DNA from: Pezizomycotina sp. ARF18
Lineage: Eukaryota > Ascomycota
Length of the DNA: 64,000 nt
Direction of reading: 5' to 3'
Assembly: GCA_002224055.1 (NCBI GenBank)
Contig: AZLU01000006.1
Span: 355,527-419,526 of the forward strand
Shown: positions 14,649 to 61,700 of the stretch, in pieces
Layout: each line of letters starts with the position of its first letter
Position numbering within the stretch: position 1 is the first letter of the stretch
The notes under the pieces: generated by a model
Told to the model about the DNA's origin: nothing
Database searches by the model: none
The model's input: the letters and a program-made list of their open reading frames with translations, nothing else
Translations under genes and position numbers: made by a program

Positions 14649-15992
14649 ATGCTTACAATCACCCAACACCGTGCGGGCACCTCTTGTCCCAACACTACCT
14701 CCATGCGACACTTTCTTCGTCGAAACCCCCGAGGATCACAAGACGAGGCGGTATATCAACAAGAGACGGATAAAGGACGCCCGTCAGTTGCGTATGGACG
14801 AGGAAAGGCTCCAGCTAATGGCTGACGAGATGTCCCGCGCTGTTTGCGAGGAATACCAGGAGGATGTTCTCGACCACATGGAAGGAATGGAAAATGAGAC
14901 GGTTCCCGACGTGGATAGCATCGACATCCAGACAGAAATTCAATGGTTCATGCGGCCGTATCTTCTTGACTTCTCATCGAAGCCATATCGCCTTCCAACT
15001 ATTACCAGAGACGCTGTTTTTGACCGTTAACCTTCTCGATCGGTATTGCTCCAAGCGGGTCGTGTACAAGCGCCATTACCAGCTAGTCGGCTGCGCAGCT
15101 ATGCTTATAGCTTCGAAATACGGCGACAAGAAGGATCGGGTGCCTACAATCCGGGAACTAAGTCGATGTGCTGCGGCTTGTACGACGAAGATATGTTTAT
15201 CAATGGAATGGCACGTCTTGCAGAGCTGAACTGGATTATCGGTCATCCGACTGTTGACAGCTTCCTTCAGCTGGTCCTGTCTGAAGTCAGTTACGACCCC
15301 GAGGCGGAGCATATGGCCCAGTATATTAGTGAAATTGCTATGTTCCACAAGGAATTTGTCAGCACACGTCTTCAATCATGGCTCGATCATCGTTAGCTCT
15401 TGCCCGCCACATTCTCGGGAGAAACACCACCCGTCATTCGGATTGGGCTGCCAGTTACGACACCACGACATTGTGTTACTATCGCAGCACCTTCATCGGC
15501 CTTCTCAAGTGCTTGTCAGGAAATACTCGAGCAATAGCTACAATTCCGTAGCTGTCACTCTCGAAGAATTCATGGCTCGACAGGCTGCCATCGCCAGAAG
15601 GCATATGCCCGCAACACCTGCTGGGAATCAGACTTGCGGAGGCCACTTGACCGTCGTTGACAACAAAAATCTTGCAACGACTCCCCGCCGCACAAGGATG
15701 GAGTGCCTCAACACGCTTCTGCCCATGGTATATAACGCCACCAGAGACACCGAACGGTGACTACTCGATTACACCAAGCTCAGCAACAACACAATATGGA
15801 CCCCATGCTGTGTACAATCTCACACGCCTCTGCCTACCCCAGCGGTCAGTCTACCCGAATCATGTTCTTATTCTCACTAGTCAAATCCGAACTACTACGT
15901 CGACCAGTACCATTCATTTCATCAACATTCCATCAACACCTCCGCCTTCATCCGCCCATAAAGGTCATCGCTCCCGCCTCGAAACTACTTAG
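14649..15992 (+). CDS. CLN1: G1/S-specific cyclin, Cln/Puc1 family (frame-disrupted)
   Basis: This is a cyclin of the filamentous-ascomycete G1/S class, the regulatory subunit of a Cdc28/Cdk1-type kinase driving Start. The reading frame changes several times. An N-terminal segment (about 14720-14970) reads TPEDHKT, INKRRIKDARQLRMDEERL, then DIQTEIQWFMRPYLLDF. The next frame (about 14975-15160) carries the cyclin box ETLFLTVNLLDRYCSKR and YQLVGCAAMLIASKYGDKK. A third (about 15165-15370) reads MCCGLYDED and WIIGHPTVDSFLQLVLSE. Later pieces give MARSSLALARHILGR and VAVTLEEFMARQAAIARR, then a C-terminal tail with TPPETPNGDYSITP, a typical proline-directed phosphosite region. Breaks fit lost bases in short runs (CCC to CC near 14988, AAA to AA near 15164, CC to C near 15196 and 15227). 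The ATG at 14649 is the nearest plausible start but needs a frame change before TPEDHKT; the stop at 15990-15992 is one of two possible ends. Family identity is secure; the exact ends and the gene symbol are less so. Confidence 0.85.
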
Positions 15993-19788: not shown

Positions 19789-20965
19789 GGAGTACCATTT
19801 GCGATTCGGTACATGCCTCAGCCAGCCATCCTAGGCGATAAATCTTCAATAATGAATGAAACACACCAAGGGTTCAATAGCATTATGATGTTATAATACA
19901 AGCTAAGATGGAGAGTAGGAGCCTTCGCAGCTAATATAACTAGATATATGTACATATAACATTGCATGTGCTGCGTAAATAGAGTCCATTTTTGTAGTTT
20001 CATTTCCTAATTCATTTGTAGAAAATACTTAATTTGAGGGGCAAAATCAAGAATGAAATTTAAATTCTGAATACGATACTCATATTTCGCACGAAAACGA
20101 GCTTGTAAAAACAACGAAAAACCATAAGATTTCTTAGAAGACTTGTAAAATGGTAAGCTCGATGTCTCACACGTTTCTGTTTGGATCCAATGAGCGGAAA
20201 GTGAGCGGAGTGAACAGAAAGTGTGTGGTTGAGCAGAACGTTAGCAAATATCGAGCAGTAAGAACTAAGTAAATAGGCAGAAAGTGAGCGAAAGGTCGTC
20301 TAGAGGTTCTTAGGGGCTTAGGCTTAGAGCATTCTACTAGGGCCTTAGCGCCTTCTATTCTTCTATAGAGCTATTTTATATAACTTTTAGCTATTCTCTA
20401 CAGCTTGAATTTCAGAGTTTCAGAGTCCACAATCTTATTGATTGGAGCTTTGGAACCCATTTAACGATGATGTGCTAGATCCCTTCGCGCTGAACCAATC
20501 TCTTATCGCAAACTTTCAAGCCACAGAGAATTTCCATCGGCCATATGGCAATATTTCGTCGGCTTTCAAGAAGTCTGCTCACATCACGTTATATAGGTAC
20601 GAAAATAGAAAGGAAGGTTTAGGCCCGGCCCAGGCAAATGATTTATTCGGTAATGAAACTAAGTAACAGACGCATGATGTGGTGAAGATATAGCCATCTA
20701 GAGAAGGTAAAGTCTTGAACAACAATATAATAGTATACAATAACAACTAGCACGGTTCCCCCTTTTGCTGGCTCCTGAGATTCTCAACTCTGCCATGTCC
20801 AGCCTTGTCCTGATAAGGTTGCTAGTGTTTCCCAGGGAGCTCGTGTGCCCTTGGTTAATGTTAGCCAATCCGCTATCATGTTTTCTCAGAACGAATGGTA
20901 ACTTACTTAGCTGCTCTTAAGCTCTTTAGTTGATCCATGCGCACCCGCTACCTGCGATCCGCAGT

Positions 20966-21280
20966 TCAGCTGTATTACAAAATGTTAGTCGCCTTGAAAC
21001 TTAACCAGAGAAGGGGGGGGGGGGGGGAGAACAAAAAAAAAAAAAACGTACGATAGAGTGCGCGCCATCCAGCCGCACTTCCAGTTCCCGCACGGCGAGA
21101 CCTGGCCACCGCACTTGCAGTTGTCGCCGCCGATGTACGTCGCGCCCTGGCAGTTTGGCAGATTGGCCCTGCAACCGCGGGCCTCGAGCGCGTGGCCGTC
21201 GCGCTTGTCGGTGATGGGCTCGGGAGAGCGAGGGCGCCAGCAGCGCAGAGGGCGAGGACGGAGAAGATGGTGAGCTGCAT
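20966..21280 (-). CDS. Small secreted cysteine-rich protein (effector-like)
   Basis: The start at 21280 gives a classic signal peptide, MQLTIFSVLALCAAGALA, followed by LP. The same frame then runs into alanine/arginine-rich nonsense. Shifting by one base just after the signal peptide (a CCC run where CCCC is expected) gives a coherent mature region. It has a Lys-Arg site of Kex2 type near residue 25 and six cysteines in order: one C, then C-x(6)-C, C-x-C, and a final C...WKC pair with GG and GNW between them. Exon 1 ends at 21052 at a GTACGT donor. The intron (20970-21051) contains a T14 and a C15 tract and ends CTAACATTTTGTAATACAG, a good branch point and acceptor. The frame then stops at once (TGA at 20966-20968), giving about 75-80 residues. 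I know no exact family; small secreted ascomycete proteins commonly have this pattern. A secreted role is inferred from the signal peptide. Confidence 0.75.
20970..21051 (-). other. Intron of the cysteine-rich protein gene, with T14 and C15 tracts
   Basis: The donor GTACGT is followed at once by a run of 14 T, a few bases, then 15 C. The 3' end is GACTAACATTTTGTAATACAG, a textbook ascomycete branch point and acceptor. A C15 homopolymer is unusual in otherwise AT-rich DNA and may vary in length between strains. Confidence 0.65.
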
Positions 21281-21356
21281 TTTAGAAGCTGTAAGAGGAC
21301 TGTGTTGTTGATCTTGGAAGATTGGTATGGGTGTGAAGAGATGAAATGATGCTGGA

Positions 21357-21395
21357 GAGTGATGCTTGAGAGTGATGATGGTGAGTGATGCTGGA
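21357..21395 (-). repeat. Three 13-bp tandem repeats in the 5' leader
   Basis: On the plus strand gagtgatg recurs at 21357, 21370 and 21383, an exact 13-bp period (CATCACTC on the coding strand). The array lies between the TATA box and the start codon of the secreted-protein gene, so it is probably transcribed leader. Confidence 0.75.
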
Positions 21396-21430: not shown

Positions 21431-21438
21431 TTTATATA
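21431..21438 (-). promoter_or_regulatory. TATA box of the secreted cysteine-rich protein gene
   Basis: TATATAAA on the minus strand lies about 150 bases upstream of the start codon. Transcription starting about 30 bases downstream would give a leader of roughly 120 bases that includes the 13-bp repeats. Assigned by consensus and spacing. Confidence 0.55.
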
Positions 21439-55731: not shown

Positions 55732-58700
55732 TTAGCTATTTGCCGTCTTTTGAGATTCTAGAGAGCGGTTTGCTTGCTCAATTGTCCGCGGGCCAACGGG
55801 ATCCCAACGGATTTGATCCAGGTCAACCGTGCGCTCGACTGTCTCCAGCAACTGCAAGAGGTGAAGAGTGAACATTAGCGATATCTCTATCAAACTAAGC
55901 GAACATTTGCACGGGCTTTTCTGTACACGGAAAACTTACTTCGGTGCCTCGAGAATAACAGTTCCATCGCCTCTCTAAACCGTCTCTTGTACTCCTTGGG
56001 CTTGTGATCGTCGGCCTATTCCGTCCACCACCCGCGATACCAGAAGCCTTGATAAGGTTTTCAAGCCGCTTATCAAAAGTATACGTGCGAACGCAATCGA
56101 TGAGGCCGACGACAAGCTCTTTCTTCTCCTCATCTATGCCAATCATGAGGAATAATCCATCACTGGTTCCGCTCCAAAAACAGTGTGTCGTTCCAGAGCG
56201 AAACACGAAGTAGCTTCTTCGAAGCTTCACGGATGAACAAGGGGTTCTCGAAGATAAACTCGACCATGTTTCGTCCAGGAGTACTTCGTTTTGCTCGCCG
56301 GTCTCTTGCGTGTAACGGTTGCGCATGGACCCTTTCAAATCGAAATCTGTGCAAAAAACAGTTAGAAGAGTTGGCTTGGAGATAGGAGGGATTTTAAAAA
56401 GAACTCACCCGTGACATCTTCTTCCGATCATAGAAGAGGTTCTCCATGACCAGAACATCCCACTTGATTTCAGCGCCGGTCAGCGAGTTCTTGATGTAAA
56501 TCTGGTAGAAGCCTAACATCTTGGCGATAGCAGTAGGAAGCTTTAAAGGCGTTAGTATTTCACTGGAAATGCAATGGCATTAAGAGAAATTGAACTAGAA
56601 TATAAAGCATACCTCTCTGAATAGTGCCTCAGACATGATGTGAAAGTAAGATGGCGCAAACTTCAAGAATGCCGTCGTCTCAACCGGCGAGAGCTGCTTG
56701 AGAACAATGCGGTCATCCAGAGTCTTAAGGAAGACTGATCGCGTTTTGCCGCCCTTTGAGTCCCACTTGATACAACGCGAGAGACTCTCTACGTATCGTT
56801 CAGCTACGCCGCATCTTCTCCGCAGCGCGTCAAATTGATCGCGAAGAATATCTTGCAAAACATCTTAGCCGAACCCTCTTGAAATTCTGGAAATCGGCAA
56901 TGTCATATTAGTATCATACCATTTTGAGGCAGCGAGAGAAATTGATGCGGCGTTAAACTTACGGTATTTCAAGTGAGTGCCTTTCTCGCTAAGAAGGGAC
57001 ATCTTCGTCGCTTGAGCGTCGAGACCAGCTTCGTCGAATGCCGTTCCCATATCTTCGGGTGGAGCATTTTGAATAGATTCAACTACCGATGCGCGCATGT
57101 CTCGAAGCTTCAGCGAGTAATCGTTACAGTTAAGAGCGAATGCGATAAGTGAGCTCGGTTCGTCTTCACGACGATAACATCCGAATCAGCAAAGACGTGA
57201 TCCGAAGGTTGCCTGTAACAGTACTATTAGCCTTAGTCGTTTGAGTAATAGAGCGTTTTGTACATACAAAGGATACTCCAGGGGGCCCATCCGCTCGCAG
57301 ACCGTTCAGACCAGAAGTTAGATAAGATTTTTCATCAGTGATGTCCGTTCGTGCTTCGGTAAATCAGCTTCGAGTTTTAGTTCGGATGGAATCTCGTTTC
57401 CAGGGTCGTAAGAACGTCCGCGACCTCGGCAGGTATCTTGAGGATTCATTGTCGCTCAAGAGAGAGAACTCCGTATCGCTTGCATCTCCTTCCCCTTCAC
57501 CTTCACCTTCGCCTTCGGTAGCGTTCTCCTGCTGCGTTGGCCGTTCCTCTGCAGCTTGGGAGCGTTGTATCCTCTTCCTTTGGCGGCGAGGAAGGTGTTT
57601 CGGTGGCATCTGCATCCTTGGACTCCACTGAGGTAGACGGCTCCGGAGAGACCTCGGCTTTATGGGCAGCCTGCTCTTGTTCTTTGGTAACTTCATCTTC
57701 CTTCTCGTCGTCGACATTGCCTGCACGGCTTGCTCAACGTTTCTGTAGACCTCAACGATGGGTTTCGAGGAAGCAACAGGAGAGGCCGAGAGCGACTATA
57801 CGCAAGCCGCCGCTTCGCTTTATTTTCCCTCTCCTTTTGAAACTCACGGCTAAGCTCCTCGAAATGTTTAGCAAGGCTGGTCACGTTCCTCTTCGAGTCG
57901 TTAGGGTGGGATCGGGGCACGGGAATCTGTGAAGTTGATTTCTTCCCGCTTAATGTTATCGACACTAGCCGGAGGCGTCTGGCAGCTTGTGCTTTTCGGC
58001 CTTTAGTTCCTTGATCGCCTTGTCTACTCTCCTTTCGAATTTAGACTTTTCAGATTTTGGCTTTATCTTGTCAACTGGCTTCGAACCGATACTTGACCGC
58101 TTCTCGGAACGCGAAGTAGACGGCCCGCCGGCTTCTGGGATTTTTGGGATTGCGCTCGGGGACGAATTGGTTCTACCTAAGTTCGTCGGAAGCGCGGTTT
58201 CCTGGTTGCGGTCGGAAGGCTCGACTTGGGGTTCTGCGAAGCACGCTTTTCGCTGCGTCGGAAAGAGGCGTAGGCTTCGCGGCAATCAATTTCACGGACT
58301 GATCGGCTGCGCAGCCTGCGTAGGAGTAGGAGTAGGGTAGGAGTGATATCAGGAGCAGGAGTCGTAGCAATAGCCGCAGGTTCAAAGTCCTTTGCGTGAA
58401 TAGAAGATTTGAGTTCGGGATTGCTCACTGATTCTTGAAGTGCCGGTGCGCTAGCCGACTTTTCAGGACTTAGCGACAGTTCCACGGAGGATTCAAGATT
58501 TGTTTCGGAGGCGGACTCATTTATTGTCGAGATAACTGAATGCTCTAGTGACTGCGAAGCCTCAGACTGGGCTTCCGCAGGAGAGGCTGGTACTTCTACA
58601 GGGGCCTCCGAAGAATCAGGAGGAACAGCAAGCAAAACCTCTGATATCTCTGCAGGATTATCCTTGATTGGTGGAGATTTACCCGTGTTCTCCTCAACGA

Positions 58701-61700
58701 CGGATGACATGAGGGAGTTTGCTTCGTCCACGCTTGAGTCTGCACTACAGGAATCGACTCTTCCGAGGGACTTCGCTAGCATCTTTATCGCCTAACGTGG
58801 AAGAATCCCCTAAGGTAGAAGAATCGCCTAAAGTGGAAGTTTCGCCTATAGTCGAAGCGTCTGCTTCGGTTGGTAGGTCGAAGTTGATGAATCTCTGTCC
58901 AAGAACATCCTTCTTAACTGCAGGGTAGCCATCCGCCGAATATCCTTTTCTGATGGGAAGAAGTTGAGATCAAACTCGGCGAACTCCTGTCCCAATCAAC
59001 AACCCGTTCTTGCATCGCTCTCATAGCGCGGTTCAGCGGAAGAACCTCAAAGTACTTGGAATTAGTGTACTTGTCTCTAAGCTTGTTGACGACCCACAAT
59101 CGTTCCTCTTCGGCTTTGACAAGAAGAGCAGCTATTTCTTCCTTGCAAGCGTCGAGCTTCTCCACGGCTACGGATTCGACGTTGATGTTCTTCAGGCGAA
59201 GAACCACGGAATCCCAAAATTTGTTGATCCTGTCGTACATTATATTGTAGATGCGATTCTTCATTTCGGTATCTAACTCTGGCTTCAGGTAACCTAGACC
59301 TCGGCGTAGATACCTCCATAAGATCGATAGAGTCGTACTCAAAACGGACGGCGAAGTCTTGGAAGCCGAAATAGCGGGTATGATCTCGGTGGAGGTCGTG
59401 CGGGCAGTTCTCTGTCCGCATCCGATGGGTTGACTCCAAAACGATAATTCCAAGTATTTGCCGAACGAGTATTTCCAGGTGCTCTCAGACATCGGCATGA
59501 CCGGCGTAGACTGTTGGTTCTTGCACATCTTGCAGTAGCTCCACATCAAGATCTGATTCTGCATGTTTCGTAGCGGACATTTGAACTCTTGGACGTGGAC
59601 GCTTACGCGAGCCTCCCCGTGGACGTACGAGCGATGATGGTCGATCATCCTCTTCTCGCAGCCGGATTCGCACATTAAATTCTTAGTTCTGATCAGATCC
59701 TCGATGTATTGACCAATGCTGCAGTCAGACTCCCTGTAATAGTCCTTGTCCTGAACTCGTCGTCGTTGGGTAATAATCGTTGTAAATTTAAACATAATCA
59801 TCTCTGGCCTCTGCACGTACTGAGGTCTGCGAACTGATCATGCTATAGAGAGTGGTGATTTCCTGATGCTCCATCGGATCGAAGAGGTGATCGTTCTGGG
59901 AAAGGTAAAGCTCCCAGCTCTTCTTCTGTGATTGGTAGGCGTGAAGAGCCTTATCGTACTCCACTTCGTGTACCGCTTTAAGCAGCTCTCTATATTTCTT
60001 GTTGTTCGAAGCAACAGGATTGTGGAGCATTTCTGGCGTGATGAGCTGGAATGTTCCTCTTCTTCCTTCTTCTCGCTGTCTTTGCGTTCTTCTTCCTTCT
60101 TCTTCTCGTTTTCTTCCCAGCGAAGATCCTCGTCACACAACCTTTTCACCCATTCTAGCCTGCGTTCATAGTTCCTGGCTCTAACAAGCTGATAAGGCTG
60201 GGCAAACTTTACGAAGGGTGAAGCTGACAAGATAGTGCTCTCGTGCTCTCTAATGTAGGCACCGTAGTAATTTGGAGGGGGAAGATCGTCAGGATACTCA
60301 TCCATGTTTAGCAAGGTGGTCACGGAAGGAGCGGTGCCATGGTGCTGGCCTTTCATCCAGTTCTTGCTTTCGGATGTGCTATCTAGCACTCGACCCTCTG
60401 GTTTTCGATCTCAGACGGCTTTATTGAATATGCTCGGCCGCTCTTTCGCTCTGTAATGTCCAAAGAGCCGACCTGGAACTTGGCGGGAATCGAGGCGAAC
60501 TGGTCTTATCAGGCAAGTCTCGAGCTTCAGATTGTAGACTACGTAGACCATGAATTCCACAATATGCTTGAGTTTCCTAAAGTCTCCATCTTCTCGCCTC
60601 TCAGACGATCGTACACCCGAGCTCCTTTTGGCAACCAGATAGGTATATGTAAATTTCCGGTTATTGCGTGTTGGAATGTCTGGGTGGACGTAGGTTTTGA
60701 CTTCGAAGGCTTCGCAGCGGCCGATCCTGTGAGGTTTCAAAGCTGTTTCCTCAGCAGAAAAAATGATATCTGCCTCGGCACACCTAGCAACGGCTTCAAT
60801 CACGGACGGTTTGACTGAAACAGCGTAGCAATACCGGCTGAATAAAGCTCCTAGCGCTAGCCTGCTCACATTCTTTTCGACGAGAAGCAGAGTTGGGTTG
60901 AGGCCAACTATTCGCTTGACGGTATTTTCGAGGTATCTTTTCTGAGCATAATGGGTTCTAAGCTCATGAAGGAGCTTTGCTGCTTGTGATACTCGATCGG
61001 AAAGCAGAACGGCTATTCTCGGCGCATTATCTGCCTCGGCATGCCCTTAACGCAAGTTCTTCGAGAAACCAATCCAGTCACATAGGCGGTATCGGCAGGT
61101 TTGCACAGGTATCCTCTTGACCTTGCAGAGTGCCTGAGGTCGATTGCATCGCCTCCTCGTACATCGGGGTTCAAATCGTCGTACATTTCAAAGAATAGGA
61201 ACTAGCGCATTCTCCAGGCTGGTATATTTTCGATCCTTGCTGATCTCAAAAGCTGACGAAGCAATCGCTTGACGTGAGACATGGATGCTGAATTTAGTTC
61301 AACGACTGGCACCAATGGCCGCGAGTGATGCGCTTCGTACAGGTGAAATCTTCGAGTTCGCGGCGCCACCCGGAGACGAAGAACCGAGATGCGAGCCCAT
61401 TGGATCTATAATGCGACTGAGGTCCGTCTGACTTCCGAGGAGATCTGGAGATATTGTCCCACTCAAATTTGGTTTCTCTTCGCTTTTCGAGGCGGAGCGG
61501 GCTATTTTCTGGAGAGACCAACGGCCGGACAGGCGTTTGGACTGTTCTGATCTTGACATTGCCGTTCCTCCGGGTTTAGGTTCGGCTTCATATCGGCTTC
61601 CATGACGTCCCTTAACGCTCGCAGCGACATTTGGGGCTGTATCGTTGGGGCGATAGTGGCGAATATTCCGACATGATGGGTTTCCTCCTCGCATCTTCAT

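What the first reader, a model, noticed from the sequence alone, without database searches (positions are those of the whole stretch)
20966..21280. Hidden secreted cysteine-rich protein in repeat-like AT-rich DNA
Simple ORF calling misses it because a one-base loss follows the signal peptide. The signal peptide, KR processing site, six paired cysteines, TATA box, consensus intron and an isolated setting all fit a fungal effector-like or antimicrobial-like gene. I recognise no named family.
Basis: partly seen in the sequence, partly recalled or inferred. Interest (0 to 1): 0.75.

Follow-up and report, generated by a model that had tools for sequence, protein, structure and literature searches.

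The report
Secreted fungal eight-cysteine protein gene
The stretch holds a real gene for a small, secreted, cysteine-rich fungal protein of an unnamed but conserved family, and the broken reading frame that hid it is most likely an error in this genome assembly.

Summary
The gene is real. On the minus strand, 21280 to 20926, lie a signal peptide, a cysteine-rich core, an 82-base intron and a short second exon. Database searches found 24 related proteins; the 13 with species names come from fungi that I recall as Sordariomycetes. Members share eight cysteines at nearly fixed spacing and an intron at the same place. None of those tested matched Pfam or a solved structure.

The KR site is not conserved, and no repeat copies of the flanks were found.

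The frame changes are probably assembly errors. HSP70 and CCT chaperonin genes of the same assembly break the same way (33 places in about 18.5 kb of aligned rows), and a cyclin gene in this window seems broken too. The window copy keeps all 24 residues invariant in alignment A5, which a long-dead gene would hardly do.

Function is not shown. My best guess is an extracellular disulfide-locked miniprotein used against competing microbes; a dedicated plant effector is less likely. Structure prediction failed (mean pLDDT 44.7 and 46.3).

The parts
21431..21438 (-). TATATAAA, TATA-box-like, about 150 bases upstream of the start codon
   Evidence: sequence; promoter function not tested
21221..21280 (-). 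Piece A: start codon and 20-residue signal-peptide-like stretch
   Evidence: 16 of 20 residues identical to the start of P0001; translated
21048..21221 (-). Piece B: leader and core with six cysteines, in a second frame; the match to the family covers 21221-21069
   Evidence: E 5.7e-16 to P0001; 33 of 46 identical; only place found in the assembly
21052..21069 (-). Piece C: last six residues before the intron, in a third frame
   Evidence: same six residues as in P0009, P0014 and P0017
20970..21051 (-). Intron, 82 bases, GTACGT donor, CTAAC branch site, ACAG acceptor
   Evidence: 10 of 24 relatives read into an intron at the same residue
20952..20969 (-). Piece D: start of exon 2, with cysteine 7
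   Evidence: same six residues as P0001, P0002, P0003, P0007, P0008, P0009
20926..20952 (-). Piece E: end of exon 2 in another frame, with cysteine 8 and the stop codon
   Evidence: 7 of 8 residues identical to the end of P0001

Best explanation
The locus is a two-exon gene, found once in the assembly, for a small secreted protein of an unnamed family conserved in Sordariomycetes. A signal peptide sends it out of the cell; a short, variable leader precedes a domain of about 55 residues that four disulfides probably hold together. The frame changes in this copy are most likely errors of this assembly, so the gene in the living fungus is probably intact. As to what it does, I commit to an extracellular antimicrobial or competition miniprotein that works like the ascomycete antifungal proteins without being a shown member of them. 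Shown: homology, gene structure, cysteine pattern, frequent frame breaks in conserved genes of the assembly. Inferred: secretion, disulfides, intactness, function.
For: Family: 24 proteins at E 7.9e-13 or better. Cysteine spacing 6,10,1,6,4,10,6 in 9 of 10 complete members examined. Intron at the same residue, with V (as a GT donor in phase 0 gives) first in 10 of 10 members that read into it. All 24 invariant columns of A5 are kept in the window pieces (compared by eye). Frame breaks in HSP70 and CCT genes: 20 and 13 places with fewer than 35 bases between segments, 26 of 33 of the one-base-short type. For the antimicrobial step: small, secreted, disulfide-rich build only.
Against: Three changes in about 270 coding bases is denser than the one per 280 to 560 bases seen elsewhere (Poisson by hand, about 0.01 to 0.08). 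Break zones in HSP70 genes are not significantly richer in base runs than random zones (274 of 2000 random draws as high). Antimicrobial role: net charge of the mature part runs from -4 to +4 in 10 members and the gamma-core motif is as common in shuffled sequences; no Pfam match; no usable model.
Confidence: 0.35

Rival explanations
1. A wall- or glycan-binding surface miniprotein: secreted, it binds the fungus's own wall or substrate polymers through its conserved tryptophans, and does not act on other organisms.
For: The N-W-K-C-x-W segment and the last tryptophan are invariant in the 11 members of A5. Conservation without conserved charge would fit binding to an unchanging polymer.
Against: No carbohydrate-binding Pfam family matches any of the 11 members scanned; no structure to compare.
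Confidence: 0.25
2. A dedicated effector that acts in a plant host.
For: Small, secreted, cysteine-rich; relatives occur in Diaporthe and Pestalotiopsis, plant-associated genera (recalled).
Against: The nearest complete relatives come from Cladorrhinum, Coniochaeta and Chaetomium-like fungi, which I recall as mainly saprobic; the sequence is strongly conserved, not diversified; one place found in the assembly.
Confidence: 0.15
3. A recently inactivated gene: the frame changes are in the organism's DNA and the protein is no longer made.
For: Three frame changes in about 270 coding bases, denser than in the conserved genes counted.
Against: Genes a fungus can hardly live without are broken in the same way; all 24 invariant residues are kept; third-position GC of the core is still 0.92.
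Confidence: 0.12

Closest known systems
Unnamed Sordariomycete family around QBC42DRAFT_308508 of Cladorrhinum samala (P0001-P0024)
   Same: Signal peptide, variable leader, eight cysteines in the same order, tryptophan-rich core, intron position, last residues
   Different: The window copy is spread over several frames; its KR pair is ER in P0001-P0005
Ascomycete antifungal proteins, bubble protein (BP)/PAFC clade (passages of PMC11423270)
   Same: Small, secreted, eight cysteines; a levomeric gamma-core-like motif in 10 of 10 members examined, though it occurs in 985 to 1265 of 2000 shuffles
   Different: No Pfam or PDB match; charge not consistently positive; one such motif where the review gives two for the BP clade
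Hydrophobins
   Same: Small, secreted, eight cysteines (family definition recalled)
   Different: No adjacent C-C pairs in the spacing of 10 members; no Pfam match in 11 members

Membership tests
Unnamed Sordariomycete eight-Cys family (P0001 family) | Significant sequence match of the core | tested here: met
   E 5.7e-16
Unnamed Sordariomycete eight-Cys family (P0001 family) | Eight cysteines in the family order | tested here: met
   six in piece B, one each in pieces D and E; spacing across the frame changes not tested because the pieces were not joined
Unnamed Sordariomycete eight-Cys family (P0001 family) | Intron directly after the -SI residues | tested here: met
   piece C ends at the donor and piece D begins at the acceptor; relatives; no RNA data
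Ascomycete antifungal proteins (PAF/AFP/BP/NFAP2 clades) | Sequence match to a described antifungal protein family or structure | tested here: not met
   no Pfam match at E up to 10 for 11 of 11 members; PDB profile search gave only Sec72 at E 0.51
Ascomycete antifungal proteins (PAF/AFP/BP/NFAP2 clades) | Cationic mature protein | tested here: not met
   K+R-D-E from -4 to +4 in 10 members, three at 0 and one negative
Ascomycete antifungal proteins (PAF/AFP/BP/NFAP2 clades) | Gamma-core motif | tested here: inconclusive
   levomeric form in 10 of 10, dextromeric in 0 of 10; both common in shuffles
Ascomycete antifungal proteins (PAF/AFP/BP/NFAP2 clades) | Disulfide-stabilised beta fold | tested here: inconclusive
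   two models with mean pLDDT 44.7 and 46.3
Hydrophobins | Two C-C doublets (recalled) | tested here: not met
   no spacing of 0 in 10 members
Plant-directed fungal effector | Expression in, and effect on, a host | not testable with these tools
   no expression data; species and host of the window's fungus unknown

The most novel reading that the evidence does not exclude
An undescribed family of secreted eight-cysteine miniproteins, perhaps with a fold of its own, kept nearly unchanged across Sordariomycetes of different life styles because it does a basic extracellular job, such as defending the colony against microbes or binding the fungus's own wall.
Probability: 0.2. Interest if true: 0.55.

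Novelty: new member of a known kind. Interest (0 to 1): 0.3.

Why it matters
It points to a conserved, unnamed protein family with a clear signature and a fixed intron that Pfam lacks; 10 of the 24 database relatives run into that intron, so the family is often recorded wrongly. It also warns that broken frames in this assembly are mostly not biology: pseudogene or gene-absence calls made from it are unsafe.

Tried and rejected
Structure: two AlphaFold2 jobs on database relatives (P0003 with 11 rows, P0008 with 14 rows) gave mean pLDDT 44.7 and 46.3, so I ran no fold search. Sequence searches of PDB, Pfam and NCBIfam gave no credible match; Sec72 at E 0.51 and ribosomal protein S5 at E 0.87 in 1 of 11 members are taken as chance.

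Gamma-core motif as evidence of antifungal kinship: rejected, as common in shuffles.

Base runs as the cause of the breaks: not significant in 13 HSP70 break zones (274 of 2000 random draws as high). I claim assembly error from its frequency in conserved genes, not from its context.

Repeat compartment: no copies of either flank found, but the search skips common words and old diverged copies could be missed. RIP: mixed and left open.

Naming the organism: not achieved; a text search on assembly size found 0 papers. The whole-genome search with PF01504 did not return the window's own PIP5K-like piece, so such searches miss things and 'found once' is not proof of single copy.

Literature: the core motif and six locus tags of relatives gave 0 papers. 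The library is open-access only, so this does not show that the family is unpublished. Papers were seen only as listing and abstract starts; of PMC11423270 I saw eight passages.

Rows dropped: cysteine, charge and motif counts use 10 of 24 relatives; P0022 (eight cysteines, truncated start) and 13 without a normal exon 2 were left out. The Pfam scan of the window used 20 of 63 frames of 110 aa or more, none of them between 17.0 and 28.0 kb. The frame-change census may count a few places twice where two frames match the same part of the profile (for example C20, C3, C99), and its aligned bases include overlapping rows.

Full report
What is there. The window lies in a 46.36 Mb assembly of 408 contigs, of an unnamed fungus. 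On the minus strand a start codon at 21280 opens a 20-residue signal-peptide-like stretch (piece A). In a second frame, 21221 to 21069, lies a leader and a core with six cysteines (piece B). Six residues before the intron lie in a third frame (piece C, 21069-21052). An 82-base intron follows (21051-20970) with a GTACGT donor, CTAAC branch site and ACAG acceptor. Exon 2 falls into two frames (piece D, 20969-20952, and piece E, 20952-20926), with cysteines 7 and 8 and the stop codon. TATATAAA lies at 21438-21431.

Not chance. Piece B found one protein in a database of 5.77 billion, P0001 of Cladorrhinum samala, at E 5.7e-16, with 33 of 46 residues identical. Piece A matches the start of the same protein, 16 of 20 identical, and piece E its last eight residues, 7 of 8 identical. 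Third-position GC of the core is 0.92, against an overall GC of 0.43 in 20400-20900. Piece B and the divergent relative P0018 each found only this place in the assembly.

The family. Searching with P0001 gave 11 proteins; a profile of eight of them gave 24 of 3314 candidates, the weakest at E 7.9e-13. Thirteen carry species names: Cladorrhinum, Coniochaeta, Monosporascus, Parachaetomium, Chaetomium and Pestalotiopsis (one each), Rhypophila (two) and Diaporthe (five). That these are Sordariomycetes is recalled, except for Cladorrhinum. In the 10 members with a complete leader and second exon, the spacing of the cysteines is 6,10,1,6,4,10,6 in nine and 7,10,1,6,4,10,6 in one. Of 24, 11 cross the exon junction normally, 10 read into an intron after the same residue with V first (as a GT donor in phase 0 gives), two follow another predicted splice and one ends earlier. 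This makes the window's intron credible without RNA data. None of 11 members scanned matches Pfam at E up to 10.

The frame changes. Two results say that they are mostly assembly errors. First, conserved genes are broken in the same way. Matches to the CCT/chaperonin family and the HSP70 family change frame with fewer than 35 bases between segments, too few for an intron, 13 and 20 times, in rows that sum to 9168 and 9339 bases. By frame arithmetic 26 of the 33 are of the one-base-short (or two-extra) type. Two HSP70 genes, on contigs C70 and C49, have six each within 1609 and 1783 bases; one search confirms the C70 piece as HSP70. In this window a cyclin gene seems to change frame between 15223 and 15247 (its Cyclin_C match, 19.5 bits, is below the cut-off of 22). 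Second, the window gene keeps all 24 invariant columns of alignment A5 (by eye), which a long-decaying pseudogene would hardly do. Against this, three changes in about 270 coding bases is more than the one per 280 to 560 bases found elsewhere; by hand, a Poisson chance of about 0.01 to 0.08. The census misses weakly conserved stretches but may count a few places twice. Break zones in HSP70 genes are not significantly richer in base runs than random zones.

Surroundings. Flanks of 1401 and 1461 bases match the assembly only at their own place. RIP indices are mixed: 5 of 14 bins of 500 bases between 18 and 25 kb pass the classical thresholds (recalled), including the bin just upstream, while the bin with the gene and the window as a whole do not. 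So an old, RIP-altered neighbourhood is not excluded. No other stop-to-stop frame of 110 aa or more lies between 19189 and 27112. Of 20 frames of the window scanned against Pfam, four matched at E 0.01 or better: Cyclin_C, Cpn60_TCP1 and GPR1/FUN34 below their cut-offs, and PIP5K above it.

Function. Secretion and disulfides are inferred from the signal peptide and the conserved cysteines. The KR pair is ER in P0001-P0005, while 8 of 11 members of A2 have R directly before the first cysteine, so the mature start is open. Antifungal proteins of the BP/PAFC kind are the nearest known thing in build (passages of PMC11423270), but sequence, charge and motif tests do not make this a member, and both structure predictions failed. 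Strong conservation in fungi of different life styles speaks against a dedicated plant effector. I rank an antimicrobial or competition role first (0.35), wall or glycan binding second (0.25) and effector third (0.15); separately, I give 0.12 to a true pseudogene.

Verdict. A real, conserved, unnamed family of a known kind. The striking part of the finding, a gene hidden by a base loss, is most likely an assembly artefact.

Noticed in passing
G000 contigs C70, C49, C3, C208, C303, C24, C54, C99, C53, C20, C139 (loci L002-L041): HSP70 and CCT chaperonin genes are split by many frame changes, most of them one base short, so the whole assembly seems rich in small deletions.
   Followed up: partly
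window 14984-15396 (+): A cyclin gene: Cyclin_N match at 14984-15223 and a weak Cyclin_C match from 15247 in another frame.
   Followed up: partly
window 55895-61046 (-): Pieces that look like one Fab1/PIKfyve-type lipid kinase gene (PIP5K match near 56 kb, weak chaperonin-like match at 60.4-61.0 kb), broken over several frames; the Fab1 label is recalled.
   Followed up: no
P0005, P0010-P0012, P0015-P0017, P0019, P0020, P0023: Ten database relatives run into the conserved intron and so carry a false C-terminus.
   Followed up: yes
window 21012-21047: The intron holds long runs of one base (C and T on the minus strand), unusual for so short an intron; their lengths may be inaccurate.
   Followed up: no
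window 21347-21395: A 13-base tandem repeat of 3.8 copies in the presumed 5' untranslated region.
   Followed up: no
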